NCBI GenBank assembly: GCA_964023275.1 | Contig: OZ029921.1 | Location: 9,291,306 to 9,355,305 of the forward strand | Source: Norana najaformis | Taxonomy: Eukaryota > Annelida > Clitellata > Crassiclitellata > Hormogastridae | DNA: 64,000 nt | Reading direction: 5' to 3' | In this document: in pieces, positions 1 through 64,000 of the stretch | Layout of the letters: the number at the start of each line of letters is the position of its first letter | Numbering within the stretch: position 1 is the stretch's first letter | Notes under the pieces: generated by a model | Told to the model about the DNA's origin: nothing | What the model saw: only the letters and a program-made list of their open reading frames with translations | The model's database searches: none | Translations under genes and position numbers: made by a program

Positions 1-1184
1 ATCATATCAGTGCTCACGATTCTTCTGCCCCTTCCTGTCAGAACAGGCGTCCACAGGTCTTTATATGTGCGGCCGTGATATCATGAATTTTGAATAAAAA
101 TTATTCTTAATTAAGTGCGACTGCAGATTGCACTGTCGAGAAAACTACTGCGTAGGCCTACTGAAAAATAAGTGAACTGTCGGTAGTGATTTCGTCTTTT
201 GTTTGGTCACATATGGATGTGAGTAAAATTTAGGGCCTATATAATTTTTATTTGAACATTATAAACTAAGCCGAAAACACTATGAAGAAAGATTATTTAA
301 CGTTTACTGAATGAAATATAACGTTCAGTGACAACAACGAAGCTATGGTTTACAAAGGGAATCCAATATGCACCCAATATGACAAAATATAATTTGCTCA
401 TACTACTCGCGAGTACTCGTATACTCGACAAAGTACTCGGAAGAGTACTCGATTTATAAAATACTCGATAAAGGCAGCCCTACCTGCATGATAGCGTTGT
501 TCGACAGCGACCGTTCAACGAAGCAACGCATCAATGAGATCAGCTCCACATGTTTCGGCGCCTCCTCGCTTAAAATGGAGGTAACCTCCAACCTTGTCTC
601 AGCGTTTATCACCAACAGACTCTACTGCCGTATCTTACTCATTGGTCAGCTTTCAAAAGTCACAACTGAACTGGTCGAATGCTGCACATTGACTCCTCTG
701 GAAGGACTGGTCAAGGCACTCTAGCAGAGGTACCATGGCGACGATTCTGACGTCAATGTGTGTCAGACCAAGTGAGGCGCCTTGACGTTCGCTTTAACCA
801 ATGTTGCTAACCGGGCCAGCACTCTTGCACTGTTAAGCCTTGTTCGGGCAACATGATTTCAATTTCAGGTGACTTACCTGATTTTGAACCTCAGACATAG
901 TATAATGTAGCGTGGTAAAGTGTAATGCAAGGTAGGATAAATGTTCATTTATTGCAAGCCTCTTAGAAAAGTAATAGGCCTATTCGGAGTTGTAGTCCTG
1001 AGACTGAAGGACGTTCTTCTGGCCGAAACTCAGTCACTCCAACAACTGTACAGCCGTGCGCATGACATCGGTCAACACTGAATTACCAGTTTTACACAAG
1101 ACATAAGGATTCGAACCCCGGACGCTGAAGGGAAAGGCAGAGACCACACACGTGTAGGTTGTATGTGTTGTTTCTGCTATTAAG
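1..1184. other. Sequence upstream of the first module exon, no gene recognised
   Basis: This is probably intronic DNA of the module gene, because the first recognised module exon starts with a splice acceptor and not with a start codon. Open frames at 488-724 (+) and 1034-1279 (-) show no recognisable protein pattern, and the second overlaps the real + strand exon. A cluster of TACTCG hexamers lies at 401-468. I see no promoter and no other coding signal. Confidence 0.5.
401..468. repeat. Degenerate TACTCG hexamer cluster
   Basis: The hexamer TACTCG or ACTCG recurs about eight times within 70 bp, separated by short A-rich spacers, and includes a small palindrome (CTCGCGAG). The spacing is irregular, so this is a degenerate local repeat and not a clean microsatellite. 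No function can be assigned. Confidence 0.55.
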
Positions 1185-1466
1185 GCAACTACACGGTTGA
1201 ACAGTCGTGGGATGTCATAACGATCAAGTTCTACAGCCGCGACTTCTACGACCACTTCAAGGACTCCCTGATTGGTCACTACCCGGTCCTGAGCTGTTGG
1301 AGGGATGCGCGCAAGAAGCAGGAGGCTCAGGTGACGGATTTCAGTGGCCTTGAAGTGACACTCCTCGTCAACGATGACATGAGGTCTCTGCTCGTGACCG
1401 ACGACGGGGCTCTGTCCTGGGTCATGGGCGACTTCCAGACGATCTGCAAAAATATCAAATTATCGG
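1185..1466 (+). CDS. Module-repeat protein, exon A (first visible module), unknown family
   Basis: This is a 282-bp internal exon (94 codons). A pyrimidine-rich acceptor precedes it (…CTATTAAG at 1184) and a consensus donor GGTAAGT follows at 1467. The frame enters and leaves in phase 1. The peptide begins NYTVEQSWDVITIKF, then has an amphipathic helix (DFYDHFKDSLIGHYP), a short W-containing stretch, a beta-rich part (GLEVTLLVNDDMRSLLV), and a closing segment with W and F (ALSWVMGDFQTICKNI). The same order of elements returns in the exons at 1800-2216 and 4817-5181, which is the main evidence that it is coding. Base composition is richer in GC than the flanks. I do not recognise the family. 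The N-terminus of the protein lies left of the window. Confidence 0.72.
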
Positions 1467-1799
1467 GTAAGTGATCGAGCGACCAAGGTCAGTCAGAGGG
1501 GTAATCACTGGCTCAGTCAGGGTTCAACTTGGCGACTGAGGTAAATGATAAAGAAAAACACGTTTATCCATGTAAATAATTTGTCCAAAATCGCAGGAAT
1601 CTCCTAAGTGGTTCAACGGCAGTTGAAGAAGGTAAACAATGAACTAGCCTTACCTTCTTAAAAGTTTTGAAATCGCTATTATATACATGTAGAACAATAT
1701 TAGCGAGGGACACTCACTGGATGAGAACTCTATAAGGGGAAGAAGAGGTGGGTGTATATACGCTACAGTTTCTCTAAGAGTGCAGATTTCGGTCTGCAG
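1467..1799 (+). other. Phase-1 intron between module exons A and B
   Basis: The 333-bp intron has a GTAAGT donor and a TCTGCAG acceptor. It joins G to GA, so the split codon is GGA (Gly) and the frame stays open. It holds no other recognised feature. Confidence 0.65.
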
Positions 1800-2216
1800 G
1801 AATTCCCGAGATGCCTCACCAGGCCACCTGTCGACCGCTGTCGCCAAGGCAACCGACCATCGGCGAAGAGTTCTATGACGCCGGTGACTACAACGTCAAA
1901 GTGTCACAGACGCAGATTGAGATTAAGTTTGTCAACGAGTGTCTCTTCGACAGCTTCAAGAGGGTCCTGCTCTGTCGCTATCCCTCGTTGCCATGGTCCA
2001 AGTATCTGCAGAGGGACTGCGCCCAGATCCAGCTGGAGTCCGGAAGGACGGTCACGGTTCACATGTGGGAAGACATTCGGTCGATCTGGCTGTCCGGAGA
2101 CGGAAAGAAGGAGTGGTATGGAAAGGAATTCCATGAAATCTACTCCAACTCGCAGCTACAGAATCCTTCGCGTACGTCCATCTTTTACAGCCTCACCTCG
2201 AACCCAGAGCTCTATG
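1800..2216 (+). CDS. Module-repeat protein, exon B (second module), unknown family
   Basis: This is a 417-bp exon with TCTGCAG before it and a donor (GGTAAC) after CTC TAT G at 2216. The entering and leaving phases are both 1. After a Pro-rich lead (roughly residues 1-25) comes DYNVKVSQTQIEIKF, a helix (LFDSFKRVLLCRYPSLPW), a beta pair (RTVTVHMWEDIRSIWLSG) and a closing W/F helix (EWYGKEFHEIYSN). Compare exon A: ITIKF with IEIKF, FKDSLIGHYPVLSCW with FKRVLLCRYPSLPW, DDMRSLLVTDDG with EDIRSIWLSGDG. A tail of about 20 residues follows. An ATG at 1811 lies in frame but inside the lead, so the splice entry explains the open frame better than a start there. The function is unknown. Confidence 0.74.
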
Positions 2217-2662
2217 GTAACACGAAATGTACCGTTACCTAGAACAGCTATAGTAACACGTAATGTAACAGTAATTCGCGCTTTGGCCAGGTGTAGTAGC
2301 TTACAGTCATGGTCACGAATGGAGTGTTCCTCAGTTGAAGTCTGTGCTGAGATACAAACCACATAGAGAGTCTTTCTGGGAAGGCAGAGTCACAGATCTG
2401 CTATCTGTTGGAGACAGACAGGCAGACAGACAAAAGAGACGGACAGACAGACGCATACAGACTGGATACTTACTCTGTCTGCATAATTATGATCTGTGGT
2501 TGGCAGCAGTGGCTGGGAGGGTAAGGGCTGTAATGAAATAAATCATAAATGCATTCAGTGGGTAGATTAGATATAGATATAGTCCTCATTTTAGTCAAGA
2601 ATTGATTAGCTGCTCGTATATAAGTCATTAGCCATCGATATATTATTGTATTAGGTCCCCAT

Positions 2663-2826
2663 AGGCTGCCCTAAATTAGCGGGACCTTGGCCCCTTTTGG
2701 GTAGACCTTTGCATTCAGATAATAGGCTGCCCTAACTTAGGGGGGCCTCGGCCCATTTTGGGTAAACCTTTGCAGGCTGCCCTAAATTAGGGGGACCTTG
2801 GCCCATTTTGGGTAGACCCTTGCATC
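2663..2826. repeat. Threefold tandem repeat, units of about 50-61 bp
   Basis: Three units start at 2663, 2724 and 2774 with AGGCTGCCCTAA. Each runs through GGCC(C/T)ATTTTGGGTA and ACC(C/T)TTGCA. The first two carry an extra ATTCAGATAAT segment that the third regains only after its end. An AT-rich stretch with AATAAACAAACAAAC follows and could be the tail of an older retroposon. Confidence 0.75.
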
Positions 2827-3379
2827 CAGATAAGTGTTTATGCTATTTACATTTGTAATGTTTTATTCTGTTTTTGGAGCAATAAACAAACAAACAATCA
2901 AACAAACAATTAGTAGTAAATTTTCCCTTTTCCCTACAAATCATACACTGATGATAGCCATAGAAGTCACTAGATAAGATTAGATTCGGTCAGGCCGTAT
3001 CAGCTTAGTTTGATAAAACATGTTTTAACTTCAAGACCATCACAAGTTTAAACATGTAGTGGCGCTTTATGAATTGCCGGTTACATTGTATTAAAGTGCA
3101 TTTAACGGTTTGTTTTTCGTCAAATTTAGTTCCGAACTCAGCTCAGGGTCCAGCGAATAAAAGTGAGCAATTCTTTCCTCATTTTCGTATTCATAGCTTT
3201 ATAAACTAGAGTACTTGGTAAATTAAGTAAATTTGCGATGCTAATGAAATTAATTGTAAATGAATTTGTCAGATTTGTTAAATTAGTCATAACCTAGTAA
3301 AAAATTTGCAAGGCGCGAACCACTCGTTCGTGAAGGGTGAGGCTTAACCGGCGCATTTCAAGTCAAATCAAACTAACTT

Positions 3380-3690
3380 GCCATTGACCATCCATCATAC
3401 GAACTCGCCATCACTTCACCCCTTGCCATTGCTGCGTAGGTCTTGCACTCAAAACTGAAATCTCTTCTCTTCCGCACATCCTATTCTGATTCCTCTTCTA
3501 CTTATCTCTCCTGAAGATCCAGTTCAAACACCACCCACCGTAGCCATCAGACTCTTGGAGCTTGACATGGAACGGAACCCATCTTGTCTATCAAATTTGT
3601 TTTGACTGCGCGCCTACGAATAAGCTAGTTCCCACGACTTAGCTTTCGTTGGGCGCTGTAAAAATCTCGAGTTTACGAATATGACCAACA
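3380..3690 (+). mobile_element. LINE 3' end remnant, family B copy 1
   Basis: The block around CCCACGACTTAGCTTTCGTTGGGCGCTG is shared with copies near 30.05-30.20, 52.1 and 57.75-57.95 kb. The copy at 51764-52190 shows that this is the 3' end of a non-LTR element: its C-terminal reading frame carries the (F/V)AVPPLWN(K/S)LLP motif typical of CR1/L2/RTE-class ORF2. Here only the distal part remains, with stops in frame. Confidence 0.6.
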
Positions 3691-4816
3691 AAATTGTGAC
3701 AGGATATTTGGTCTTCCGCTGATCTTCCTTTTTCAAGCCTGTCCATCAGTTTATTAATTTTTATGACTTTCTCTTAGGTCCATTCTCTCTATCACACTCG
3801 ACATTAAGTAACGCGTCTGGCTCCTTTGAACCAAGTCTAAGACGGCAGAGAGCGAATCCAGCCTTAAGATAAGGTCACTTGCAATCGTCTGAGCTGATGA
3901 TTTTACTCCTGAATAGTCCATTAAGAACGTCCGCAGAAGGAGAGTCACCCAGAAGCTGACAAGAGGAGGGGGTTATGCCAAATGTGGACTCCCGTATCTA
4001 AATTAGGTATATACAGTTAATTCAGTACAGCCTCTGCCTTAAACACCAATGTGGACAGTCAGACAGCAGACAGTCTGTACGGCTTTGAATCTAATTAGAG
4101 TCCACTTGCTGGACGCCACAGTATCGAAGTATGCCACCACGTAGCACAGTTAGTTCTGCAAGATCAACAGGCCTAAAGCCTAATGTTCGCAAAGGGGATG
4201 GCGGAGGGCAACGACAAATGTGGACAGTGGGGAGGGAGGAGTCCAAAGTACAGTGGTGTAGGTCATTTTTGCGAACGTCATTTATGAATGGCTACAGCGC
4301 ACCTGCCATGCGATGGCAGTGCTAGCGTCAGAAGACTTCCTCAAGGACTGTTATTCATAAATAGCAGAGTATGTGACTACTCAGCATGTTTGGGAATACT
4401 GCTGAAACTGGTTGAGCTGAAACAAGGATGGATCCTGGAGGCAATCCAGCAAGGCCATCCGTTTGAATTTAGGGGAGAGACCATGCCACTGAGTTACCTT
4501 CAACCTGGTTTTGGCACAAGTTGCACCCACATCAATGTTAAATTTTAAAAAGTTTATGATACTACTGTTAGTAGTACATGTAGGCTAAACAAATTTTACA
4601 ACACCTCATTTCAGATCACTGCTGTCATCCTGCTGCATACACCCTGAAAACCTTGCGTTGTGGCATCAAACACAAGGTCTCCTCCTCTGATCTTTTTTGA
4701 ACATTGGATAGTACGTATGTCACCCAACTTAATTCGCTTCTGACGACGGAAATTGCCTGCGCACCGGTGAGCACAGTGTCCACAGCATGTGTAAGATGAA
4801 GTTCTTGTGGCAACAG

Positions 4817-5181
4817 TGACGTTCACAGTCAAGACGCTTTACATGGGCGGCTACGAAATCGAGTTTCCAGTGGCGGAGTTCCTGCCAAAGATTAAGACGA
4901 TGCTCCAGGAGAAGTACCCGACGGCCAACTGGTACGTGTCGAGCTGTCGAGACGAGGCCAACCTACCCGTGTCGGAGGTCAAGAACAAGACGCAGTCGAT
5001 ACTCGTCCAGATGGGAAACGCCAAGGTCAAGGAGAGGAAGATGTGGATCAACGGAGCAGCAGAGGTTCTGAGGCTGTGGCTCGACGAACTCAACCAAATG
5101 TACCTCACGGCTGCCGAATCAATTCACAAGAAACCATATCTTGGTATCAAACGCATTCGTCCTGTCATCGCATCTTTCTAA
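4817..5181 (+). CDS. Module-repeat protein, exon C (third module), unknown family; possible 3' end
   Basis: The exon starts after CAACAG in phase 1, so the split codon is G|TG (Val). It reads VTFTVKTLYMGGYEIEF, a helix (AEFLPKIKTMLQEKYPTANW), a linker, a beta strand (QSILVQMGNAKV) and a long closing helix with W (EVLRLWLDELNQMY). The order matches exons A and B, and KYPTANW corresponds to RYPSLPW of exon B. Two ends are possible. A phase-1 donor at 5144 (CTTG|GTATCA) would give a fourth symmetrical exon of 327 bp. Read-through would end at the TAA at 5179-5181 after a short basic tail (IKRIRPVIASF). I list the longer form because no following module exon is visible. The ATG at 4807 lies before the acceptor and is unlikely to be the start. 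Confidence 0.72.
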
Positions 5182-6317
5182 TGTCAGCCTAGTTCTGTCA
5201 CTTTAGCATCTGTCGCACTTTTTCACTGCATTCAGGCACCTTTCGCTGTCCCTGTCTGCACGTGTCTCTATCTCCTACTGCCTGTCTGTCTGCTTACCTG
5301 GCTGTGTATCTCTCACTTATGCTGCTAATGATGCATGAAAACTTGATACACAAAGTACACTGAAGAACTATAAACCACCAAAAGTTACTGAAGTTTGGCA
5401 AAAGACGCATTTCTCATGCAAGTCCGACTGCTTGGAGCAGTGAGCTCACCTGCAGGAGAAGAATGGCTCTAGAGACAAAACCAAATCAGGCAACAGCTTC
5501 AGTCGCACTTGACTTTCCCAACTGATGATGTAATACGCTTACGTATGAGTGGCGCTACCTATAAAGTCACTTGCTTTGGGCTCGTAGGGGGCTGCATTGT
5601 GCCACTTGTGGCAACCGATGGCCACGCATGGGCCCAATGAAAGACGCTGTCGGGGTTGAAATGTGTAGTGTTGTAATCTTATCTGCTGTACATGTGTTTG
5701 TAATTTGATTTATCTTTTAGACTAGAACAGCCGACGCTATGTCCTGAAGTCAAGGGATTCACTCGTCAAACAGTGCCTCTGTTCTACTAAGAACTGAAGC
5801 AGCTGCCAAAAAGGAACTGTGCAGACTCCGTGAGGACAAGGCTGACATAAAACACAGTCCTATTAAGGGTTTCCGAATCTACCATTTCTGAAGTAAATTG
5901 AGAATTGAACAGCGAGGCCCAAGATCTCCGATTAGCCAAATGTGGACATGCAATGCTAACATCTGCTATGATCCAGCGACAAGATCTGTTTGAACAGACT
6001 GAGACACAACTGCCGAACAACAGCTGAGATAATGAGTTGTAAAACCTAGGTAACAACAGCTGTACCAAACAGGAAGATGCATGATCCCCCCAACGAGGTA
6101 AGACATTAATCAGCAACAACAGAGATCAGCTAAACAAAAAACACATCATCATCGAGATAAACCCATATGAGAGAAGCAAATCACCTGCAAAGAAAACAAA
6201 GCAACAGTTAAAGAACAAGGTACAAGAGACCCACTTTCTGAGAACTTTGTGAAGCTTTCTGGGAACTGATAACCGAGAGTGAAGCCATTAGGCAGAATCC
6301 TAATTAATAAAAGATTA

Positions 6318-9322: not shown

Positions 9323-9557
9323 TCATGTGTACTCTTTGACGAATTTATGCAGAAGCAGTTGTTCGGCTGACCATCGCTCTTTTGGATTGCGGCAGAAACA
9401 ACATGCAAGGAATTCTTGTGACAGACTGGATGATGTGGGTGGAAGTTGGTAGATAGGCGGATCATGTGTTGCAATCTTAAAAATAGCGGCCACTCCCTCA
9501 AATTCGTGCCATGGTGGATTGCCAGTCAACATCTCGACTACAGTGCAGCCAAGACTC
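9323..9557 (-). CDS. MAP3K2/3 terminal coding exon (kinase C-lobe)
   Basis: The acceptor TTATTCAG lies just before 9557, and the stop TGA is at 9325-9323. The exon opens by completing the Trp codon of VDIW and reads [20 protein letters not shown], then [12 protein letters not shown] and a basic C-terminus [19 protein letters not shown] and AAIFKIAT are near-invariant in MEKK2/3. The antisense frame at 9261-9452 is a shadow. Confidence 0.9.
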
Positions 9558-12500
9558 CTGAATAACACAGAACAACAGGCAATTCCAGCATAGCTGTAAA
9601 ATCTGAGATACTCAATGGCTCCATAGGACAATAGGTACTCCAAAAGTGCCACCCATTTCAGAGTGGCACAGTCGTGCAATGTGCACTTCACCCCTGCATC
9701 CCGGGTGTGGTAAGTCAAATAACATTCACAATTCAAGCAATGTAATCTGGGAATTAAGGATTTGCACTTCAACAGAAGTATTCTTCAACCCAGGACCACA
9801 TCTCTTAAGACTGATGTCGATATGCAGGCAAATACCTTCCTCGCCCTATCCTCTAAATACTAAATCACCCTAGACCTAGACAGCTGGAAAAAGTACTGAT
9901 CAGTAACAACAAAAGCAGAGTTAGGCAACACTGTAATAGTATCTTTGAAAGACTCTTACAAGGCTCTATATGAAAGTTCTGTTACAACTCTATGACAATC
10001 CTGTTTTACAGGATTTTTGGATAAATGTAATAAACCACCACAGTATTTCATTAATTTGACCTTCACAAGAAATTGTTGTCGTGCACACGATGCACCAGGA
10101 TTCAAACTCATGAAGTTGAAAATCCAACAAACAAACACGTCATTACTCAGGTAAACTACACCTCTTTATAATCCCACCTTTAGCAATCACATCAACTACA
10201 ATGTCATGAAGTGGTTGTGCACATTAGAATGAAGTCAGAAGCTTTTGGGATCCATTTTCCCAACCACATTATACAGTATCAGATTCATGCTATAATAATA
10301 CACAAAATTACAATGGTCTGGCACATAAGGAGGCCACTGGTAACTTGGCAAGAGCAGCATTGTCCCTTTTCACTATGCAGTCATCTCGAAATTCACTCAG
10401 TCCATTTGTAAGCCATGTTTCCAACATACCATATATCAACCTTGCGTCCATAACTTTTGCCTTCAATGACCTCGGGTGACATGTAGTATGGCGTTCCAGT
10501 CATCGTTTTAGCATTTGATGCGTCGGCTGATTTTGACACAATAGTTGTCAGTCGCCGAGATGCACCGAAGTCACTCAGTTTGACATTGCCATCATGGTCA
10601 CGAAGAATGTTGGCTCCTAATTAAGCACACACATACAATCAAGAAGACAGAATAAAGATCAGAAAGATTAGAAAAAAAGAAAAGATTGACTGAAAATCAT
10701 TGACTGACTGACCAATCAGTCTAATCTTGTCCAGATTTGGCAGCTGCAGTCAGCATTCAACTGGAGGCAAACTAGCAACGATGCAGTATGCCTAAATTGC
10801 AATTCTGGAATTGGACATTTACCTAGTGTTGCTTCAAGAGACTAATCAGAGGCACTTTCTCACTAGCTCAGGTATTACTTACAAGCACAAAAAACCATCC
10901 AAAAACTCAAAATCCATAGTAAATAAATGTAAATAACTCCAAAATGCCAAATCAATCATAGTGGCAGTCCAAAAATGAAAGATTACCGAAATAATTCATT
11001 TGAGATGAAGTTTAAGATGAAATGTCATATCGTGGCTGTGTTATACCAAAAGCACAGAAAAAAGATTTTCTGCAGTATCGCTAAATACACCATTCGATCG
11101 TTAGACACTTCTCTACTCAAATAACAAGAATCCTGTTGGCCCTTTACACATAAAAGTCCTTTGCAACTATGTCACAATATAGTGTCACAAAGAACTCGAC
11201 GGTCGAGTGTTTAATAACGGCAATGGCACTGATGCTAGTATATGTGTATGTGTACCTGGACGTTTATAACTGAGAACCTTCTAAGTTCATAGCACATAGG
11301 TATGCTCACCACCTTGCACTCTTTGGGCCGATAGTAAAATGCAATCAGCCAAAATGTCCTTCACACCACCAGGTTTGTTGTGCTGTTCAATCTCATACAT
11401 CGGGAGCTGGGCTGGCTCTTGTTAAATGACTCAGATCTTAGTGGATAGTCAATGCCACTCCAAAGACCCGACATGCTGTTCGGTCATTGCTTGGGATTTT
11501 GGCATTCTTCTTGACGGAAGGCACACCGTAACTGACCTGACCTTGTGAATTCTAGCCGCAGGTCACGCTAGTATGAACCGAAGAAGATCAGAGTCATCTG
11601 ATCTGAACCTTGAGTTCTGGCTCTGGCAGCAAACTCATACACTCTTTTGAACTAGCCTGCCCAGGTCACTACAGTGCCATGCTTGCTGACAATCTTGTCC
11701 AGATTTGGCAGCTGCAGTCAGCATTCAACTGTTCTGGCCATCTGCTGACCAAATTTCTTTGTTTTTTTGGAAGAATTATATGTGACATACGCTGCATTAA
11801 CTGTAACCTCACTAGCACTGAACTATGAAAGGTTACCAGTAGTCTGCTAGCAAACCACCACTACAAATGCTGAATTAACATGAGACTATGTCTACCTTTG
11901 ATGTCACGATGTACAATCATGAGGTTGTGCAGGAAAGCAAGGCCTTCAAGAACCTGTCGCGTGTACCGCCTGGTGACATTTTCCGTCAACGGACCATACT
12001 CCTTGATCTGATCCTTAACTGAACCCTGCACAATGTCACAGACAAGTGCAAATTGGAACATAATTTCATTAAGACATTTTAACAAAAAAAATTATTGGAT
12101 TCCAAGATGAAAGCCCAAGAATTTCCAGAGTTCCAATATATTCATACGTGGGTATTGACTGATCTTCCTCGAATATGATTAAAACCCATCAGACAGGAAA
12201 GATTTGGCTTTGATCCAGAGACCAACAAAGACTCAGCTCAATGTATTATCAGAAGAGATTTTCAGAGTCTGGAGCCAAAACTGCAAGAAACAAAGGCAGA
12301 AACAACTACTTATGCCAAAACTATGCAGTTATTACAAAATCATTTAATAACCAAATTCTCCCTTAAGAAAAATTATCATCACATGATGTGAAAGCAGTTA
12401 TTAGATACTGTAAGAATCCTTACCCCCGGTACATACTCCATGAAAATGGACAAAACCTTCAACTCTTCGTGACTGCCATAGTACTGAACAATGCGCGGAT

Positions 12501-15500
12501 GACAAAGATCCTGAAGTAGCTGGATTTCACTTCTTAATGCTTTCACTTCCTACAACAATCAGAAAACCACAGATCAAATCAAATCATCACCAAAATTATA
12601 CACAGAATGCGCAGAATCTCGTGACTCACCTAAAGACTTCTATAACCAATCGTAATCCACAATATGCACACTGCCATAACCAGGTCTCTCACAGTTTACT
12701 AACTTACATAGAAAAGAATAAAAGTCTTCAAATGGTTTTTCTTACACATTTGTACATCATGGTTAATGTAGCGATTTCACTACAGTCAGATAGCTTGTAT
12801 GTTTGCTAATTTAATTAAAATGGCACCTTCATCCAGTTATTTGGCACCATAGATATAAAACGTACATACACACACAAATGCAGAACGATAGTCCACTTTT
12901 TCAACTAGAGACAATCAAATCAATGATGTAACTGGTTGCTATGGAAACTTATGACACTATGTCAAATTAACATCCAGTTAGTCCTTACTAGTTTAAGAAA
13001 ACGAATATAACAGGCATCAAGGGAACTGAAAGAATCAGTCAACTGCAGCAGACTATTTGCAAAGTCAACGTTATGAATTGAACATTAAAGACTTGGCCAT
13101 CGAGTTCTTTGTGTAACTAGTTGCGATAAACTTGCAGAGGACATTTATTTGTAAAGGATCAACAGGACTCTTGTTATCTGAGTCTAATGATTTAATGGTC
13201 GAAAAAGCGATACTGCAGGTTTTAGTATCATCAGAATTACATACGACTCAGCGATTGTGCATACAAAATAGAGCAACAAGGAATCAAAAAGAAAAAAAGA
13301 TTCAAGTCTGCTTCAATCCCCACACAGTATCTAACAGAATTTCTTAATTCCTGTATTCAACTGAATTTCATCTCAGAAGATAATAGAAAGTGTTGAGTTT
13401 ACTGCAACACTCACAGTGAAATATCCTGTATGTAGTTTAATGGAACCGAAATGAGAAGTACCTTGGAAACTTCTTCCGTGGCACAGTAGACATGAACTTG
13501 CTTGACAGCCATTTCACAGCCAGTGTCAGTGTCATACCAGAGGTAGACCTGCCCAAATCCTCCTGTTCCCAGAACACGACCTTTCTTCCAATTGGCAGAA
13601 GTCTGTTGAACTGTGCAGGCAACACAAATCCAGAATATCACTTCAGCTGTTAAGGGTCCTGCTGTTAAGTTAGCTGTTAGACTGCATTAACTGAGCACAA
13701 TTTCTGTATTTAAAATGAATTCTGAGATTCTCATCACAGGTGCTAATAACCATTTCTTGAGTTTGCATAAAAATATGTAGTGTAAGGAAACATTTTTTGA
13801 TGACGACAGAAAACAATATTTCCAGCTGACCTAGATTTCCACGTGACCTACATTTCATCACATGACGTCCTAGACTTATAACAGTGACCTACATTTCTGT
13901 ATGCTAAGTCGTTTCAGACTTCCGGTCAGTTGGTCAGTGTTGGTGATGCTGCCAATGCCACTGCTGCTGCTACTCCCACACAGCCCGGCGTCTGGTGCCA
14001 CCAAGTTTGGCCGTCGGCCATGACGAGGAAACGTGTATGGTGGAACATTCTCTGTGCATAAACAGAAATAATATTTTCTTATAAAAAAATGACTCAGAAC
14101 AAGGACTTTCATGGAAAAACAAATATCAGCAGAAAACATTCTGCAAAGGAAAAAGAAATAAAACATTCCTTCACAACATACAAAACTGTTATTCTGGTCT
14201 TACCAGCAGGAAATACTATTTTGTCAAAATTCTGTTGTGAAATGAATTACAAGATTATCAGACCACATATGGCAGCAAATGCCAGAACTTAAAAAAGAGG
14301 AAACATAATTGTCTGAAGGTCAGTCGTGATTCCTCACATGAAGCTCAACATATTTCCAGCAATACGGACAGAGTGAGATATCATGGAGCATGAACTGAAG
14401 AGACACTAAGCGTATGAGTACTGTCCCCAGCTAGAGCAAAGCTAGGCCAACAGAAACAGATGAAACTGAAACTGATGACAAAAGACAATTCCTATGTATT
14501 AAAAAAGACTAGTGGAAAGTGAAGATATACACTGGTTACCATGAACACTCTGACCATAGGCTGGACTGGACCTAGACTTGGGGTAAGTCCCTCCACGGAT
14601 CTGCTCCATAGCCAGTGTCGCTTCAGAAGAACAACCATGTCCAAACCTGAAGAGAACATCCCATTCATCATGTTTTACTTGTCATCCAGTAGTAAATCCT
14701 ACAAGGAACTGAATTAATACAATGCTGTCATAAATTGAAAAAGAAGCAATTGGACTGAAAGTGCCCAACTAATCCAACCAGGCCTCAGCTGGACACATCG
14801 TGTGACATTTAGGTAAACATCTGAATATCATCTCGATCCCAAATTTAAATAAAATGTGTGAAAACTGTCACTTGCTTTTAAAAGAAATCTGTCTTTACCA
14901 ACAATAAACCAACAGAAGAGAACATCACTTGTAGCCCTAGTAAGTGCCTTGAATAACCATAAAGTAATGTAAAGGGGCCTTTACATATATTACCACTTTA
15001 AGGAAACTCTATGGTGACATGCCTGGCCCATCAACAGCAATCCAACATGGAATAAGGTGGTTCTATCATCCTCTGATGGAATGAAGGAAGGAAAAGGCTC
15101 ATGAGTTCTGAAGTTATTCCTCTGATGGAATGAAGGAAGGAAAAGGCTCATCAGTTCTGAAGTTATTCCTCTGATGGAATGAAGGAAGGAAAAGGCTCAT
15201 GAGTTCTGAAGTGACTACCAGTGGGCAACCCCTTCCACAATGATGGCCTGACAACAACAAAGCTTTCAGACGACAGTAAAACTTTGTTATAATGGACTTC
15301 TGCAGACCAGTTGTAAACGTCCATTATATCCGAGGTCCTCTGTACTCAAACCCACCAGTCCATACCGTACATTACGCATAGGCCTACTGTACGCATACTG
15401 GATATTGACAGTACCAATGAAACCAATTTATTTCTTTATTAGCTTATTTATAAGCTAATGTTAAACTCCTCAAAAGAAGTCCTTCATAGTCGTCTTCGCT

Positions 15501-18500: not shown

Positions 18501-21500
18501 GACCCAACCTTCCTCTCGGGATGTGAATGCTTGTAGGAGAAGGCATCTGGACAAAGGAGAGGCAGATCAGTATGTACACCATTTGTAATCAAAGACCTGT
18601 TCTCAGCAAAGCGGAACTTAATGGTTTATGTTTTAAGACTCATGGACCTATGCAAAAGCCTTATTTGGTTCTGAGGTTGAAGGACCTTTCAGCCAAAGCA
18701 CAAACATGACACACTCAACAACTGGACGATGTCTTCGTAAATATTGTCAGTTACAGTGGGATTCAAATGTTGGTTAGGGAGTAACCGTGGTGACATGACT
18801 TCTGCCTCAAGATATAAATTGTAATTGTAATTGTAAACGAACATTTATAAAGCGCCACTTAGGAAACAGTGGCGCTCCCGACTTGAACAAACAAAAAGGA
18901 TTTCAGGCGTTTGCGAGACTGGGTAGGAGAGAGACTGAGTAACTGAAACCGCAGGTCAAGAGGAAGGCAGTTCCAGCTGGAAGGGCCAACAAAGGCAAAG
19001 CTCCTGGACTGGGCAGTTGTAGTGCGGACGCGAGGGACTACCAAAAGACCACGGGTAGCTGAGCGAAGGGAGGCATGGGCAGGCAACGAGGAAACCGGAA
19101 TACATGCATAATGCAGTCCTGACTAAAAGGCTCAACTGAACTATAAGCATAGGGGGGACACATAAGGCCAACGTAGAGGTCAAGAAGTGTAGCAGAGCAT
19201 GAGCAGACATTCTTTACAATGGTGCATGAACGTTCATTACCGCTGTCTGTGAACCAAAAAGATCCCGAAGACGACCAGGTAGCGGCTGGTCATCAACAAG
19301 TAAAAGCAATCGCAGGCATTTGATATTCTCATTCAAGTCGACCAATCGAACAGCCATGTCGAGATGTTCCTGACTCTCCATGGCAACTGGCATCTATAAA
19401 ACAACAGTATAGGCTTAACTTTTGACAACATAAAAGATTATTGCCATGACTCTCCATGCCACCCTGTTTCTACAAGAACGTCAGATATAGGCAACTTAAC
19501 ATTAGTGATTACTGCCATGGCAACCAGCATCTATGATAATACTAAAATAAACAAATTTCTTGTAATCGTTTTGTCAGTGGTCAACTGGGCTCTTTAAATG
19601 GAAAATGCATGTGAATGTAATGATGACTTTCAAAGGAACTGATATATAAGACAACAACACAACAGGTTCATATAAGACAACAACACAACAGGTTCATATA
19701 AGACAACAACACAACAGGTTCATATAAGACAACAACACAACAGGTTCATATAAGACAACAACACAACAGGTTCATATAAGACAACAACACAACAGGTTCA
19801 TATAAGACAACAACACAACAGGTTCATATAAGACAACAACACAACAGGTTCATATAAGACAACAACACAACAGGTCCATATAAGACAACAACACAACAGG
19901 TTCATATAAGACAACAACACAACAGGTCCATATAAGACAACAACACAACAGGTCCATATAAGACAACAACACAACAGGTTCATATGAGACAACAACACAA
20001 CAGGTTCTAGGATCACTCAGACTACCACATACAAATATACTTAAACACAGTACACAATAATGATATCCAAACAAACATGAAAATCAGCATTTGTAACATA
20101 CACATCCAATCATACTGACACTACCTAACAAACGAACGCATCTATACACACACACAAATGCAAATACACTTACCCAAACAGACAGTCATAGAAATAAACA
20201 AAGAAACACACGTTTCAACCATTCTTTGCCAAGTAAACCTTGTTCAGCCAAGCAATAATCCAGTCAGCCAATGAGTACAGGCAGAATAATGAACAGGAGG
20301 AATGGTGATTCCGAGTGAAACCAGCCAACCTGGATGAACTTGAGAGGTAACCCTGAGCAAAGCTAGTCAGACAATCTGAGAGACAGATACCATTAGGTCA
20401 GTTGTTGTTTATAGTTCTGTTGTTGAAAGAAGGACTGACATGTTCTTGCACATTCCAGGTTGCCCGTATCTAAATCTATTCGCCCTTCCCCACACAAATA
20501 TCCTCACACATCTCTGAATTTAACCTCACTACTGTAAACTAACAATGGCAGTGCAATAGCATGGTTCAGATCATTCTAAGACTTGCAAAAGGAGCAATCC
20601 ATATAAATGGCCAGATCCCCACAGCCGTCATACATTTTTCAGGGTTTTTAGGTTCATACAACAGAAGAAATTGGCAATTCTTCAACTGTCTAGACTTCCT
20701 AATGGTCAAATTTTCACCTCCAATACAGAACTACACTGACTTCAGTGCAGGAATGTCATCTCATGTAACAGCAGAAACAAACTATTATATTCTCGAATAA
20801 ACAATTTGAGTATAAATTCTTTTAAAAAACATACCAAGTCAAAGACACCGGAGCCTGTCCTCCAACATTTGTATCTCTACCTCTCAACTTCGTCTGTATG
20901 TGTGTACACTTTCAATATTAGCACGAAGGCATGGCTGTTGTCTAATCTTTGTCACTCTGCCTAGATAATTAATCACCGAGCACTTGCCTGGTCCTTGTGG
21001 ATCTGATAGCAGAGGACAAATGAATTTCCATAGTACTTCTGGATCTTGGAAAGAAGTTCCTCGTACTTTGGAGGTCGACTTATCTGAAAACTCCTAGTGT
21101 CAACAGACAAAACGCACGCTTGTAATACATGTCGTCCTGTATTTCAGGACCAAATAATAAATGAGCAATTGCCTGTCCCTATTTTAAATTCAAAATGACA
21201 GTTCTGTCTTTGAATCTGCTGCTCCATTTCTCCAAATCCCATTTTCATACAAGGCTGGGCTTCATTTTGATCAGTGATGCAAGCAGATCTCTCCTGGAAT
21301 CAGGATTTGTCCATCGAATTTACACAGGCATTAAGAAAGAAAATGCAAAATCTCAAGATTTCCTCTTATCAAGTACCAAGCTACGAGAATAGCACCACTT
21401 GTGCCCAAATGTCCATGCGTTCCATGTGACATCCTGCTTTGGAATCTGCAGCTTTGCCCTCCATGGGAACCGTTTACTGGCATTACTTCTCATCAGAATT

Positions 21501-27500: not shown

Positions 27501-30500
27501 TCTCAAAGGTTCTGCTTGTTAGTCCAAATGATGTTGAAGTTCTAAACAAATGACTCGTCTAAAGTAGATATGGTCTTGCTCACTGAAGTAGATATGCTGC
27601 TGCTCACTGTTATAGAGATCAGCCATCAAAAACCCTTTCATGGTTGACACTTGTGTTCAGAGTCCTTGGTCCATGTTGCACTGAAGACGACAACGACACT
27701 GAACTGAATGAAACACCACCCACACATAATTACGCATTCACAACTGCTCATCCTTCGGTTGACAAATGCAAAGTCTGTGCTGTGTTCAGAATTCACAGAA
27801 AGCTGACCCCAAATTACCTCTCCATGAAGGACAATCACGCTGGATTCCAAAAGCAGAACTGAATCCCAGACACCTAAGTCTGTATTATTTGACAGTGGTC
27901 TCACTCGTTCGGGTCGGGACCGCCTCTGATGAGTCTATTCTTGAAGTGGCGCTTTATAAATGTCAGATTACAATTACAATACAATTACTGTCAGTCCAAC
28001 TTCATTCATTAGCAAATTTTACATACTGCCTCTCCTACATATACCTCTCATACCTACTCAGAGCAATCCGAACTGAGCCTCAGCAAAACAGAACAGTTTA
28101 TAAGTGTTGACAAAGGGAGTATACAGTGTGGATGGTCACAAGGAGATCCATATCCGGGGAAGACCATTCTAGGCAGACAGCCCAACCACTGAAAAGGCAT
28201 GCCGTCTGCTTTGCCTTTACAAAACTCTGACCAGCTGGTTTAGCTGGGGTTTAAGTCATCTGTGTTGAGGCTTAGATAAAGGAATCAGCTTTTCCACTGA
28301 TCATTTAGATTCCCAGTTACTACCAACAACCAGTGTTTATGAATTATCAGACGATGTGCGTACTACAGTACATATGATATGTATACATATGATACTGAAG
28401 TGGGTAGTCACTAGAACAGAGGTGAACTGTATTTAATAAACACAAGCCCTACTGCACTTCCTCTAGCAACATTTGGTTAAGGGCAGAGTGAAACATTCAG
28501 GTTGTGAAGTAGGTATCAAAGCCACCAGTGATCTCTTTCACTGGTTAACTTCGTACGTACCTATTCAGCCAACATTTAAGTATAGAAACCAGCAATTTCT
28601 GTCAACATCTGTGAGGTCAGTCTCTGTGGCAGTCGGCCATTCACTTGACTAGTTGATTGTTTGGTTGGTCACCCTCACCTACCCATACCTAACAAGTAAG
28701 TCTACTTCCAACCTAACAGTGTGGCCTCAGAAGGACCTGAACTTATATGAACTGGTCACGATGTAGACCAGGACACACTAGAGGGTCTAAAAACACTGGA
28801 ATAGATCAGCCAGCTCAGCAGCAAATACCAAGCATGGATATCATAGCAGCCTTACCCCTCCAGATAATCTGCACTGAGGCCTAAATAACAGTATCACATA
28901 TCCTTACAGCATGTACCCAGAGCTATTCTGGTTTCAATTTCCATTAATACCCAATAAAGTATTTCTGCTGGGTCAATGGCAGTACCCTTGCTACAAACTG
29001 TCCTCAAGGAGTTGTCCTTGATGTCTGTTGGGTATTAATCAGCCATTTTATAACCAGTCATTACAACCTATTTTCTTCTTCTCATGAAACTGGCCAAATT
29101 GTGCTGAAAGAATTACAGTTTTCAAATGAAAAAGGTAGGATCATTATTGATTTACTCCAATTTTCTATCAACTACAGTCCTCAAAGGAATGATCCAGGGG
29201 TTTTGATGTTCTTTTGGCTGAAGTGCATACATGACAGGAGAAAGAGAATCTGATAAAAACAGCATAGAAGACATGTAGAAAAACATACAACAAGGAATAC
29301 AAAGAGCAACCAACATAGTTGGCTGCGATATACTTGGATGGACTTGCAAGAAGCCTAAAGACGAGAAGATATCAGATGATCAGATGAAACGCTAGAACTC
29401 GGGGAGGAAACAAACACCTCACAAACATTCTGAAAAACTACCAAGATAAGAAGAAGTAGGAAAAATAATAAAGAAAACAAAGCTATGAACACAAGAGACA
29501 ACAATATACCCCATTTTCATATATGGATCAGAATGCTGGACAATGAGAAAGCAAGATGAGGACAAATTCTTACAACAAAAATCAGAAAACAGAATGAATC
29601 TCAATACTAAAAAATTAAAAATGAGAAATATGACAGTCTCTCTGGAATCATAGTATGGATAAAGTTGTTCAGCAAAGACTCCTATGGTTTGGTCATGCAG
29701 AAAGAACACTAGCTGATCAAATCCCACACAATGCACTGCTTTCAAGATTCAAAGGAAAGGGAAATAAAGGAAATCCACAACTATGTTGGATAGACAGCAC
29801 AAATGAAGGCGTAACAAGATTTGGACAAAACATGATCAAAGCATCAGATATGATAAATGACTGAAAAGAATGGAAAATATGTCTTTGCACCCATTGCCGC
29901 AAATGGCTGACGTTCAAACTGATGGTCATGATGATGCAACCAACCGCACTTCAACAATGTGTTGCTGGGTAAAGCAGAAGTTTCTACAGCCAGACGCTGG
30001 TTGTCAAAAGAAAGCTGGATGTCAGCCAGTTGGAGCAAACCATTTCTGTCTCTCCGTCTGACTTTTGGATCTTGACCTGAAACCGAACCCTTCTGCCTAT
30101 CGATTTTGTTTTGACTGAGCAAATGTGAATAAGCTGGTCCCCGCAGCACGGCTTTTGTTGGGCGCTGTAGAAATCTCGGAATTACGATTACGAACCATGA
30201 CAAAGATCTTGTCCCAAGTCAATAAAGAATGGTTTATCACAGATTCCAACAAATGTCACAGCTTAAATGGCTAAGAATAATTGGGCCTTTGGTAAAGTGT
30301 TTAATAAAATTTGGCTTCTGTAAAATCTACAAAGAAGTTAAGTGCTGCTGGTGAAACTGCTCCACATCTAATGGTTTCAAAATTTATCGTGTTCTTGCAA
30401 CTGTTTTGTAAATTTTGGTAAGCTACTCATGACACTGGCAACCACACACTTCTCAAACTTCTGAAAGTGCTCAGTTTTAACAGCTAATTAACAGGATTAA

Positions 30501-36589: not shown

Positions 36590-38035
36590 AAAACATCTCT
36601 AACGATGACAATGGTTACCACACTAATAAAGGTGATATCTCTAACTACCGACCTATCTCTAACCTTTCCTTCCTCTCTAAGCTTCTTGAAGATGCGTGTC
36701 CATCCAACTGGTTGACTACCTTGACTCTAACTCCCTCATGCCTCCTCTTCAATCCGGATTTAGGAAGTTCCACTCTACTGAATCACTTATTACACGTCTC
36801 TTGGCTGACGTCTTTGGAGCTTTTGACCGTGGACAGGTTACTCTTCTTGCCCTCTATGATGTTAGTGTTGCTTTTGACACTGTGGATCACTCTATCCTTT
36901 TGGAGCGTCTAGAAAAATCTTTTGGCATTACTGATACTGCCTTCTTTGGTTTCAGTCATTCCTCTCAGACGTTCCACCTGGTCCCTTCTACCTTTTGCCC
37001 TTCCTCAGGGTTCTGTCCTGGCCCCTCTCCTTTACATTCTGTACACTGCCGACCAGGCACGGGTTCTCCTTCCCATGGGTGTTGCTGTCCATCAGTATGC
37101 AGATGACACTCAGGCCTTCGCTCATGGCCCAGGGAAGTGGCTTCCTCTCTGGTTGACAGGATTCTTGACGCAACATCTGCCCTTGGTCGCGATGTCCTCT
37201 AATCGCCTTCGACTGAACTGTGCTAAGACCCAGTTCATCTGGCTTGGTGGTCGTGCTCAGCTTGCTAAGATTGATTCATCATCCGTACACCAGAGGTTTC
37301 CGGACATTCTATTCTGTTCCAAAGTCCATGATCTTGCGGTTGTTCTGGACCGGGAACTCTCCTTGACCGATCATGTTAACAGTGTCTCCCACTCATGCTT
37401 TTCCCAACTTTGTCACCTTTGTACCATCTGCTGCTCCCTCTCCTTTCATGCCGTTACTACTCTAATTCACGCCCTTTTCTGCATCAGGGTGGACTTTGGT
37501 AATGCTATCTTTGCTGGACTCTCACTTGCCAATATTTCCAAGCTTCAGTCTGTTCTCAATGCTGCTGCCCGTCTTATTGGAGGCGTCCCCAGGTATGGCC
37601 ATATAACTTCCTTTATGAGGGACACTTTGCACTGGCTCCCCAGTCAGCAGCGTATCCAGTTCAAGATCCTAACCCTTACGCGTAATTGTCTCGTTGGCTC
37701 TGCTCCATCATATCTTAGAGACTTCTGCATTTCGGTCTCCTTGGTTCCAGGCTGTAGCACTATCCGGTCGGCCTTCCTTGGACTCCTGACTGTCCTTCGT
37801 ATGTGCACTGCTACAGCTCAGTCTAGAAGCTTTGCCTATGTTGGACCTAATAGCTGGAATCGCCTTTCCTGAGAGCTGCGGCTTGAATTCCTCAGTTTCT
37901 CCCTTCCGCAGTTTCACAAGTGCCTGAAGTCTGTATTATTTGACAGTGGTCTCACTGGTTCGGGTCAGGAGCGCCTCTGATGAGTCTATTCTTGAAGTGG
38001 CACTTTATAAATGTCAGATTACAATTACAATGGTT
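36590..38035 (+). mobile_element. L2/CR1-like LINE, 3' part with reverse transcriptase
   Basis: The longest element here. It reads NYRPISNLSFLSKLLE, QSGFRKFHSTESLI, AFDTVDHSILLERL, then after a frameshift near 36960-37000 PQGSVLAPLLYILYTAD and VAVHQYADDTQAF (catalytic YADD). It runs through GVPRYGHITSFMRDTLHWLP and ends [19 protein letters not shown], with an in-frame stop about 35 codons early. The 3' UTR has GTGGCACTTTATAAATG and a TTACAATTACAAT tail. The endonuclease is absent (5' truncation). It is antisense to the kinase gene. Confidence 0.92.
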
Positions 38036-45539: not shown

Positions 45540-46230
45540 TATATATAAAATTCTGCTTTGTCCCTCAGAAAAGGTTGCACTCATCATCATTGTCTTCTTC
45601 TTCATCATCACCACCACCACCACCATCATCATCATCTTTGTCATCGTCGTCATCATCATCATGTTTCTGAAGTCAGCCATAAGGCAGCAACGAGCATGAA
45701 TAAATGATCTCCATTCTTTCCGGTCATGTGTCCAAATTAGGATTATTCTCATGTTTAGCCCATCTTGTTATGTCCTCATTAAACTATCTATCCAGCATAG
45801 TCATGGTCTTCCTTTGCTTCTCTTATCCTTTGTATCTTGCATGTAGCACAGCAAGTGAGATTCACTCACCTGTCATTCTTGCCACATGACCTAACCCTCA
45901 TTCGAGTCTTCACTGAATGACTTTACCTAACAGAGTTATCTGTATACCCAACGATTGCCACATATCATCATTTCTAATTTTTTGTAGTCTTGAGATGCAA
46001 GCAACTTTCCTTCTGCCAACTCAATTCTGTTTTGAGGATCCTTTTTAAAGCATCTTTCTTTCTCACTGTCCAGCATTCTGATCCATACGGAAATATGGGT
46101 TGTATCATCATCTCATATATTCTTGCCTACATTTGCATAGTCCTTTCCATACTTCTCCCCATCCTGCCCATTTGTCCAAATGCTTGTGATGTGCATCCAA
46201 TTCTTCTTTATGTGGCTTCTGACTGAGTGT
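45540..46230 (-). mobile_element. RTE-like LINE 3' fragment, antisense, with TCA-repeat tail
   Basis: On the - strand it reads IYGSECWTV… then a region equivalent to the WFGHM segment, with stops. It ends in a TCATCA/CACCAC tail at 45581-45661 (+ coordinates). It matches the sense fragment at 29180-29860. Confidence 0.7.
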
Positions 46231-48271
46231 AAGCACTGATTATGCCACTAAATAAACTTAAAAACTCCTTCTACATAGCAGGACAAAACCTGCCAACATC
46301 AAATTACATCAAATGCCTATTTGACTGTTAGCTAAACAACTTCAGCAACTAACTTGTTTGGAGTTTCCCATTCCAATTTCATATTTTCAGTTAATTTATC
46401 ATGCTTTGTTCATCATAATTGTGATAAAATCTGGCAGATTGTCATCCAATAAAAACCAAACACTAACCTGACGCATCAGCAAAATTTGCAGCATGAGGTT
46501 TATAACTCAGCCAGACCAAAGAGCTTAATACTCATACACAGCATTATATAGGTAAGCAGCAATTTAATCACAATGTTGGACAGATTCAAATCACACTAAA
46601 CCTGGTAAGTTCTATAAAAATTGTAACTTTTAACCAAGAACATTTCTGAGTAGTGAACAGGTGCAATAAACAAACTTTGACATCACATAAAGCTTTTACG
46701 ATTATAAATGTTTACTATGGACTAAAATTCCATGAAATATATTGCACTATGCCAGCTTTCTGACACAAGATGACAACTGAAAGAACAACAGTAGTAGTAT
46801 AAGGAAAAGACAGCAGATATCATCAACAGAAGGACCATTTGTTGGCAAGAACAACAAATTCAGCCTTTGGGGTACATTACCACAAAGCCTATTGCCATGG
46901 CAAGTCAGTAAGGCAATAACACAAACAGACAACCCACACAAATATTAAAAACACACAAGGCCTACAGCCAAGTATGAGGCGACTGAACATGGGAACAGCA
47001 GAGGCCACAGTGATGAGACAAATAAACTGAGCACAACTAATTCCCACCAGCAAGAATTAGAATTATTAGGACATCATTAAATCCATCACTTCTTCCATTA
47101 AAGGCCCAAAAACACTCATGATGCTTTAAGAAATTAAATTTTTGCTGTCCACAAATTCAGTCAAGCAAACTTTCAAAGTGGCATAAATGTAAGATCTGCA
47201 GTGTCCTTACTGTGATCAAGGTAGTATCAATCAATATTTGCAAATAAACTAAATTACAATGACTGCCCCTTCGCTTTAGATCTTTGCTTTAGATTTCTTT
47301 CTCTTCTTCTATAGACTTAAGGCTTAAAGTAACCGGACTATGATGTAATGCATTATTTGGTTGCTAAAGGTGTAAGTGGCACATTAGAAATGTAGCATTG
47401 CATTTCAATGAGAAGGAGAAGCAGGCACCTTAAACCACTCTGCAGAACAAAACAGATGTAATATGAGTGTCTTTTCCTTTGACTCTTATGGCTCCTCGTA
47501 ATGTAAACAAATTGAATAAGCAATTGTTAAAATGAAATGTAAATATCTATGCAGAAATATCATACTTGTGTTTGAACCAGTTACCTCTCAGCACCCAAAC
47601 ATTGCAAATCAGAGACAAATTACTGGGCCAAAGCCAATGTCCCTCAAGTTTGACTCCTGTGGTCTTGTGCAAAATTCTCAACTACTGCAGTCTAAGAAAA
47701 GGCAGCACAATTGTTGGAATGCTGGTGGTGTGTCCCCAGAAAATGTAATCTGACTGTTTGTCTCTGAACACTATTATAACTGACTAGAGTCTGCAGTAAA
47801 TTAGCCAATACCGCTGCTTACCTTATCTTCCAAATAAAGCACAGCTGATGATGATTACTGGCACAAGAAACTCCACTTTCTCATATGCACATAACTGCCC
47901 CACTTTGGAATATTTTCATAGCCCAGAGACTTGCTGTATCTATTGCACTAGTCTCCGTTAATCCATTAGTTTGTTAGGGTTTAAAAGGAAACCAGGCTGG
48001 TAATTCTGGGTCAAGCTGAGACTATTGAGACTGTATTAGGCAGTGAGTTGCATAAACTTTCCCAAGTAGGCACCTAACTGGAGTGGCTTATGCCAGGGTG
48101 TAGGTACTTAACAAAGGATCAAATTTCTCAAACGGCTTTGAACCTCAGCAAGCCAACACCTAACAGCTCTAGGCTAGCATCTCAGAACTGAGACACAGGC
48201 ACAGATAAATAAGATCACAAGTGTATTGTGGACTTCTAAAAATAGTCCCCTGTGGTGGTATTACAACATAG

Positions 48272-62687: not shown

Positions 62688-63688
62688 TCATACGGAAGTC
62701 GATGTATTGAGAGAGTTGCAATTGTTCTCGTCGACGCTCAGCGGAAGATACTTGATTGCATGACAGTCGACGTGGTTTGAGGAGGATGCCGTGTGACTTC
62801 GAGGAGGGGGAGGAGGAGCGGAACAAAAGGTTGACGATGACGAAGATGAGGTGGTGGTGGTGGATGTCGTCGTCGTTGTCGTCGTTGTTGATGGTGAGGT
62901 TATGGCGGCGTAAGGAGCTGCAGGCACTGCGACGGGGATGGGCGATGTCCTGCGCTGGAGACTCGACGCGCCTTCCTGGGAGGCAACCAGCTGGTGCCGG
63001 GTCGATATGGACAGCGGCGGTGGAACAGGTCCTGTCAGGGTCGCCGTTGCATCGCCGTTCGAGTCAGTGGCGTCGGCCAGAGCTGAGCTGCAGCGCAGGC
63101 GGTACGTCTGCTGCGCGATCAGTTCCTGGTCTTTTTCGAGCAGACTGAGTTCACCGGCGCAGTGCAGCCTCAGCTCTCGACGCATTCGGTCCTTCTGGTA
63201 GAAGAGAACGACGAAGATGAGCAAGTTCAAGAGGAACAGAGCGCAGCCGACGCCGACCGTCACGCTCAACGACAGCGTGTTCGTCGTTGTCGTCGTCTTA
63301 TAGGGCTCGGCTGCGTCCGGTCGAGCGTTTGACTGTTTCGTCGATGCTTGGAGGACTACTTTCGGCGGAGGAACTGTGCTTCGGTTCTGGTGTCGTCTGC
63401 TCCATGACGTCGGCCTCCGCGGGAACGGTTGGTAGGTAATGGCGTTCGTCGACTTTTTGACGTCGTAGTCGGAAGTGGGGGAATTGAGGGCGATTTCATC
63501 TTGCCAGAGCATGGCCGCATTCGTCAAGCGAGTGTACTGTTGGTCCTCGAACGTCGACAGGTCGGCGTAGTTGTCCAGCTGGTGATACCTGGCGTCCAGT
63601 TGGTCGGATTTGTGCAACCGAGGTATGAGCTCCAGCCACAGCGCCATCTTGGAACTGCGGTGGTGGTGACGAATGATTGCTCGAGGAC
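62688..63688 (-). CDS. Neuroligin, terminal coding exon (partial gene)
   Basis: This is the last exon of a neuroligin, the postsynaptic cholinesterase-like adhesion protein that binds neurexin. The acceptor TATAATGCAG lies just before 63688; the stop TGA is at 62690-62688. The exon opens with PRAIIRHHHRSSKMALWLEL, then IPRLH, matching KPRVRD(H/Y)YRATKVAFWLELVPHLH at the end of the esterase-like ectodomain. A stalk of about 110 residues follows. A single membrane segment (LSLSVTVGVGCALFLLNLLI) ends in the basic stop-transfer KDRMRRE. The cytoplasmic tail of about 165 residues has poly-Thr, poly-Ser and PPPPP stretches and ends NTSTSV, a class I PDZ ligand where vertebrates have TTRV. The ectodomain exons lie beyond 64000. 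Neurotactin or gliotactin are alternatives, but the LWLEL…LH and TM blocks favour neuroligin. Confidence 0.87.
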
Positions 63689-64000
63689 CTGCATTATACA
63701 ATCATTCGTGTGTTGCTGATTTGTCTAGTGTCATCTGTTGTAGGCTTATCAAGGTCTATGGTGCACTTGTAACCGTCATGTATGTGTAATTATTAGAATT
63801 TGAAGGAACTGCCTCCTATATATGTGTTGCAGAGCCAAATAATTCCTGTGCAGAAGGCAAAGAGGAGGAAAGCAAGGATGAGAAACAAGTACAATGAAGA
63901 GATGATCTACTCAGAGTTATATAGCATCGGCCACTCGAAGACAAGGGGTATGGCAAACGACATTTAGCCCTTTTTATATTCAGCCATGTCGTCCCTGAGT
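63689..64000 (-). other. Start of the neuroligin intron, no exon seen
   Basis: On the - strand this is the intron upstream of the terminal exon. It ends in the acceptor TTGTATAATGCAG. No open frame of esterase character appears in the remaining 310 bp. Confidence 0.6.

What the first reader, a model, noticed from the sequence alone, without database searches (positions are those of the whole stretch)
1185..5181. Unrecognised protein built from tandem ~85-residue modules, one per symmetrical phase-1 exon
Seen: three + strand exons whose translations repeat the same order: beta strand ending (I/E)(K/E)F, amphipathic helix ending (H/R/K)YP…W, beta-rich stretch, then a short beta hairpin and a closing helix with W/F. 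Each junction that can be tested (A-B, B-C) is phase 1, and the outer ends also fit phase 1. Known: symmetrical 1-1 exons are the units of exon shuffling and tandem domain growth. Inference: this is a multi-module gene grown by exon duplication, with modules diverged to about 20-30% likeness, suggesting old age or fast evolution as in recognition proteins. I cannot match it to a named domain.
Basis: partly seen in the sequence, partly recalled or inferred. Interest (0 to 1): 0.82.

Follow-up and report, generated by a model that had tools for sequence, protein, structure and literature searches.

The report
Animal gene of three TBP-fold-like modules
An animal gene carries three diverged copies of one small protein module, one per exon; no library searched here names the module, but its predicted shape resembles one lobe of the TATA-binding protein, a fold often used to grip nucleic acids.

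The parts
853..868 (+). Candidate first coding mini-exon (M-I-S-I-S + 1 base), phase-1 donor CAG|GTGACT; speculative
   Evidence: One of 5 ATG-to-phase-1-donor candidates in 6.2 kb upstream of exon A; donor 8 of 9 consensus. No transcript.
1185..1466 (+). Exon A: module 1 (about 93 aa), phase 1-1
   Evidence: homologous to B
1800..2216 (+). Exon B: about 28-residue linker plus module 2 (core 1886-2161), phase 1-1; alternative donor after 2171, also phase 1
   Evidence: predicted fold pLDDT 91.3
4817..5181 (+). Exon C: module 3 and C-terminal tail; most likely the last coding exon (stop 5179-5181)
3390..3684 (.). Interspersed repeat of about 300 bp inside intron B-C; 39 near-full copies elsewhere at 79-84% among those scored; not part of the coding gene
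   Evidence: query 2206-2500
6306..6311 (+). First AATAAA after the stop; possible poly(A) signal

Best explanation
This is one animal gene that encodes a protein of about 350 residues (start exon not established, cellular location unknown), built from three diverged copies of a domain of about 92 residues. Each copy lies in its own phase-1 exon, so the gene most likely grew by exon duplication (strongly supported for A and B, well supported for C). Each module folds as a TBP-like (beta)beta-alpha-beta4-alpha unit: two helices pack on one face of a curved antiparallel sheet and the other face is exposed (secondary structure predicted with high confidence for B; packing by analogy with the fold neighbours; A and C inferred from alignment). 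Mechanism (inferred, about 35% for nucleic acid): the exposed sheet faces, which by strand alternation carry aromatic and polar residues (B: H59, W61, W68, Q47, Q49; C: the W of KMWING), grip an extended ligand, as TBP and the RNase H3 N-domain grip the minor groove of DNA or RNA/DNA hybrid. Three modules joined by linkers would give affinity through repeated weak contacts. The alternative ligand is a protein partner.
Confidence: 0.6

Rival explanations
1. Same gene and fold, other ligand: a protein-protein scaffold whose modules share the TBP-like/helix-grip topology but bind protein partners or dimerise, as BamC, COR and adaptin appendage domains do (functions recalled). This rivals only the ligand step of the best explanation.
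For: Flpp3, BamC, COR and the beta2-adaptin appendage are among the fold neighbours; A and B are acidic.
Against: Several other neighbours with comparable Z (RNase H3-N, METTL16, TBP) bind nucleic acid; none of either kind matches by sequence.
Confidence: 0.4
2. Only A and B form a duplicated pair; C is an unrelated exon, perhaps of another gene, that looks similar by chance.
For: A-C shuffles 580 of 5000, B-C 55 of 5000, C at E 0.45 with an A+B profile; not reported by A or B alone in the genome; C has a weaker acceptor and a 2.6 kb intron before it.
Against: Sole third genome-wide candidate for the A/B mix; 0 of 300 shuffles and 0 of 200 ORFs; same phase, same start relative to the first strand as A, similar GC3.
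Confidence: 0.12
3. Cyanovirin-type (CVNH) lectin modules.
For: A scores CVNH at E 0.14 in Pfam; one member scores a mannose-binding lectin model at 0.019 in NCBIfam; the three-module profile hits tandem cyanovirin in the PDB at E 0.2.
Against: The Pfam score is below the curated cut-off and none is significant; the Pfam and PDB matches cover only about 30 residues at the module's end; B and C give no CVNH match; the model has two long helices beside a sheet, unlike the cyanovirin fold (recalled as nearly all-beta).
Confidence: 0.03
4. Decaying gene or pseudogene of a once larger array.
For: No clear start exon; no other module accepted around it.
Against: Three exons open throughout with strong coding bias and a strong donor A; A and B agree most at the second codon position (0.53 against 0.43 and 0.41), as expected under protein selection.
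Confidence: 0.08

Closest known systems
RNase H3 (RNase HIII) N-terminal domain, Pfam PF11858 DUF3378
   Different: No sequence or profile similarity found; no Pfam-recognisable RNase H domain in the three exons; three copies instead of one
TATA-box-binding protein, Pfam PF00352
   Different: Three modules, no sequence similarity found; the animal's TBP-family matches lie elsewhere (C9 26.09 Mb and C6 32.84 Mb) and appear cut by introns inside the domain
RnlA/LsoA endoribonuclease (RNase LS) N-terminal region
   Different: No HEPN nuclease recognised in the three exons; no sequence match
KA1 domains (SAD, Chk1) and METTL16 KA1/VCR region
   Different: Parts of kinases or of a methyltransferase; no sequence match
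BamC / Flpp3 lipoprotein domains
   Different: Bacterial envelope proteins, no sequence match

Membership tests
TBP (PF00352) | Match to the family profile | tested here: not met
   No PF00352 hit for A, B or C; hhalign score reached by 146 of 150 column shuffles, with a thin profile of the animal's own two TBP repeats
TBP (PF00352) | beta-alpha-beta4-alpha fold repeated in tandem | tested here: inconclusive
RNase HIII N-domain (PF11858) | Match to the family profile | tested here: not met
   the 2 hits in the own genome lie elsewhere and are below cut-off; hhalign against 79 of the 80 fetched RNase HIII loci: 15 of 150 shuffles reach the score
RNase HIII N-domain (PF11858) | Fold of the N-domain | tested here: inconclusive
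RNase HIII N-domain (PF11858) | Fusion to an RNase H-type catalytic domain | tested here: inconclusive
   No such Pfam match in the three exons; other exons of the gene, if any, are unknown
CVNH lectin | Match to profile above cut-off | tested here: not met
   13.4 bits against a cut-off of 24.5, A only
KA1 domain / BamC domain | Fold | tested here: inconclusive
Symmetrical 1-1 exon module genes | Module bounded by phase-1 introns on both sides | tested here: met
   A and B both ends, C 5' end, from sequence alone; C's 3' end is more likely a stop
Symmetrical 1-1 exon module genes | Exons joined in a transcript | not testable with these tools
   No RNA data

The most novel reading that the evidence does not exclude
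An animal protein family, unrelated to TBP at the level of sequence, in which a TBP-fold domain has become an exon-encoded tandem module: a three-saddle clamp for nucleic acid (for example RNA/DNA hybrid or foreign nucleic acid) that adds modules by exon duplication.
Probability: 0.18. Interest if true: 0.65.

Novelty: new variant of a known kind. Interest (0 to 1): 0.4.

Why it matters
TBP-like domains are known from a few ancient nucleic-acid-binding proteins (recalled; also PMC4132731, passages). An animal gene that multiplies such a fold as 1-1 exon modules, with no recognisable family, would add a new module to the exon-shuffling set and a candidate nucleic-acid or protein binder that can be tested directly. 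If it is only one more uncharacterised lineage-restricted scaffold, it is a modest addition to annotation.

Tried and rejected
Relatives outside this genome: GTDB genome contigs with B (24 pattern matches, none confirmed) and IMG/VR with the three-way alignment (97 pattern matches, none confirmed) gave nothing; no eukaryote collection was on hand, so absence of relatives in other animals was not tested. Paper searches: no listed title or abstract start describes such a protein; (TBP-like domain + invertebrate + tandem) listed 0 papers. Of the listed papers I read passages of two only (PMC3710099; PMC4132731); PMC3597702, on the TBP-domain superfamily, is not held.

Further modules: 230 kb upstream plus the window, 7,516 six-frame ORFs of 25 aa or more. 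Best non-self matches: E 0.15 with the three-module profile, and with single modules E 0.055 (B to 46116-46247, - strand) and 0.27 (C to 27546-27644). None accepted: short or partial matches. In the smaller set of 1,848 ORFs the same B match stood at E 0.014 and a profile hit at -3047..-2880 at E 0.038; both rose in the larger set. DUF3378-like hits at C5 and C11 were rejected: two near-identical ORFs of what looks like a repeat. A recalled motif of other animal proteins ('LLVQG...W') was tried as a query and found nothing, which shows nothing. B alone without an alignment gave a useless model. A weak PDB match of C to poxvirus OPG104 (E 0.099) was not pursued. hhalign with RNase HIII-N gave probability 0.7%.

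Full report
What was checked. The window is part of contig C9 of an unnamed 608 Mb genome in 17 contigs; which animal it is was not established. On the + strand three stretches are open in one frame each: 1184-1471, 1778-2239 and 4795-5178 (translations). Within the exon borders their third codon positions are 77%, 73% and 76% G+C, against 41% and 43% G+C in the introns between them and 40% in the window. Among 7,516 six-frame ORFs of 294 kb (230 kb upstream plus the window), a filter for coding-like composition left 14: the three exons, one antisense shadow of exon C, and ten others that include low-complexity stretches, ORFs over the reverse-transcriptase relic at 37 kb and an ORF at 62.7 kb.

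Borders. Acceptor and donor sites fit exons A 1185-1466, B 1800-2216 and C 4817-5181. Every testable junction is phase 1: A's last base plus B's first two give a glycine codon, B's last base plus C's first two a valine codon, and A starts with two bases of a codon whose first base lies in an unknown upstream exon. Donor A scores 8 of 9 against a simple consensus, the two possible B donors 6 of 9 (both phase 1), and a possible donor at the end of C 4 of 9, so the stop at 5179-5181 is the more likely end. A five-codon first exon at 853-868 with a phase-1 donor (8 of 9) is possible; it is one of five such candidates in 6.2 kb, so it is only a suggestion.

Repeat of the module. A and B: 34% identity, local score 117 against a maximum of 53 in 5000 shuffles; in the whole genome B finds A at E 7e-7 (2 matches of 4 candidates) and A finds B at E 5e-6 (2 matches of 3 candidates), and neither reports C. 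C is much further off. Pairwise it is weak: 55 of 5000 shuffles reach the B-C score and 580 of 5000 the A-C score; an A+B profile ranks it first after A and B among 1,848 ORFs, but at E 0.45 with the next ORF at 0.62. Two tests speak for it. A query in which every residue comes from A or B (checked), run against the 608 Mb genome, had three candidates in all: B, A and C (E 2.0, 29%). And hhalign of the A+B profile with C gives score 21.67 (E 0.0024, probability only 12%, 40 columns), reached by 0 of 300 shuffles (maximum 17.5) and 0 of 200 real ORFs, a random 200 of those of 90-160 aa in the 294 kb (maximum 18.2). With the matching phase and exon start I take C as the third copy. C as query found only itself in the genome (1 candidate).

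Not a named family. Pfam, NCBIfam and PHROGs give nothing below E 0.01; PDB sequence searches give nothing below E 0.09. The weak cyanovirin/lectin matches (Pfam E 0.14 for A; NCBIfam E 0.019 for one member; PDB E 0.2) are rejected, since the Pfam and PDB ones cover about 30 residues and the predicted fold does not agree. Direct profile tests against RNase HIII N-domains (79 of 80 fetched loci; one partial match left out) and the animal's own TBP repeats find no sequence link (15 of 150 and 146 of 150 shuffles reach the score). So this shares a fold type with TBP-like domains, if the model is right, but is not a member of either family by sequence.

How it may work. In the RNase H3 complex the exposed sheet of the N-domain lies across the minor groove of an RNA/DNA hybrid and stacks a histidine and a tyrosine on deoxyriboses (PMC4132731, passages read). 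From the strand assignment and simple alternation I infer that B exposes E12, K14, C45, Q47, Q49, T57, H59, W61, S66, W68 and S70 on that face, and C the tryptophan of KMWING; no coordinates were inspected. This fits a binding face with aromatic residues. Against nucleic acid, the translations of A and B are acidic (pI 4.9, 5.9) and only C is basic (9.35, B with its linker). I give nucleic acid about 35% and a protein partner about 40%.

Setting. The gene is tail to tail with a protein kinase on the - strand: five ORFs between 9.3 and 13.7 kb match Pkinase, three of them over the curated cut-off, and a weak PB1 match lies at 21 kb (E 0.021); by its text it resembles MAP3K2/3 (recalled). The intron between B and C holds a roughly 300 bp interspersed repeat with 39 near-full copies at 79-84% among the candidates scored.

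Verdict. Speed of evolution, expression, lineage range and function remain open.

Noticed in passing
window 9326-13686, - strand; 20976-21143, - strand: Exons of a protein kinase (Pkinase in five ORFs, three over cut-off) with a weak PB1 match at 21 kb (E 0.021, below cut-off); text resembles MAP3K2/3 (recalled).
   Followed up: partly
window 36690-37869, + strand: Reverse-transcriptase relic in two overlapping frames (RVT_1 E 2.8e-6 and 4.7e-5, both below the curated cut-off).
   Followed up: no
window 62691-63701, - strand: 337-aa ORF with high third-position GC (0.68); a transmembrane-like stretch and tail read like a neuroligin C-terminus (recalled); Pfam gives nothing significant.
   Followed up: no
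window 3390-3684: Interspersed repeat of about 300 bp; 39 near-full copies at 79-84% on 14 of 17 contigs among the candidates scored; SINE-like by size.
   Followed up: no
G000:C9:26090935-26093228 and G000:C6:32844559-32847774: Two places with TBP-family exon matches: probably TBP and a TBP-related factor, each apparently split by introns inside the domain.
   Followed up: no
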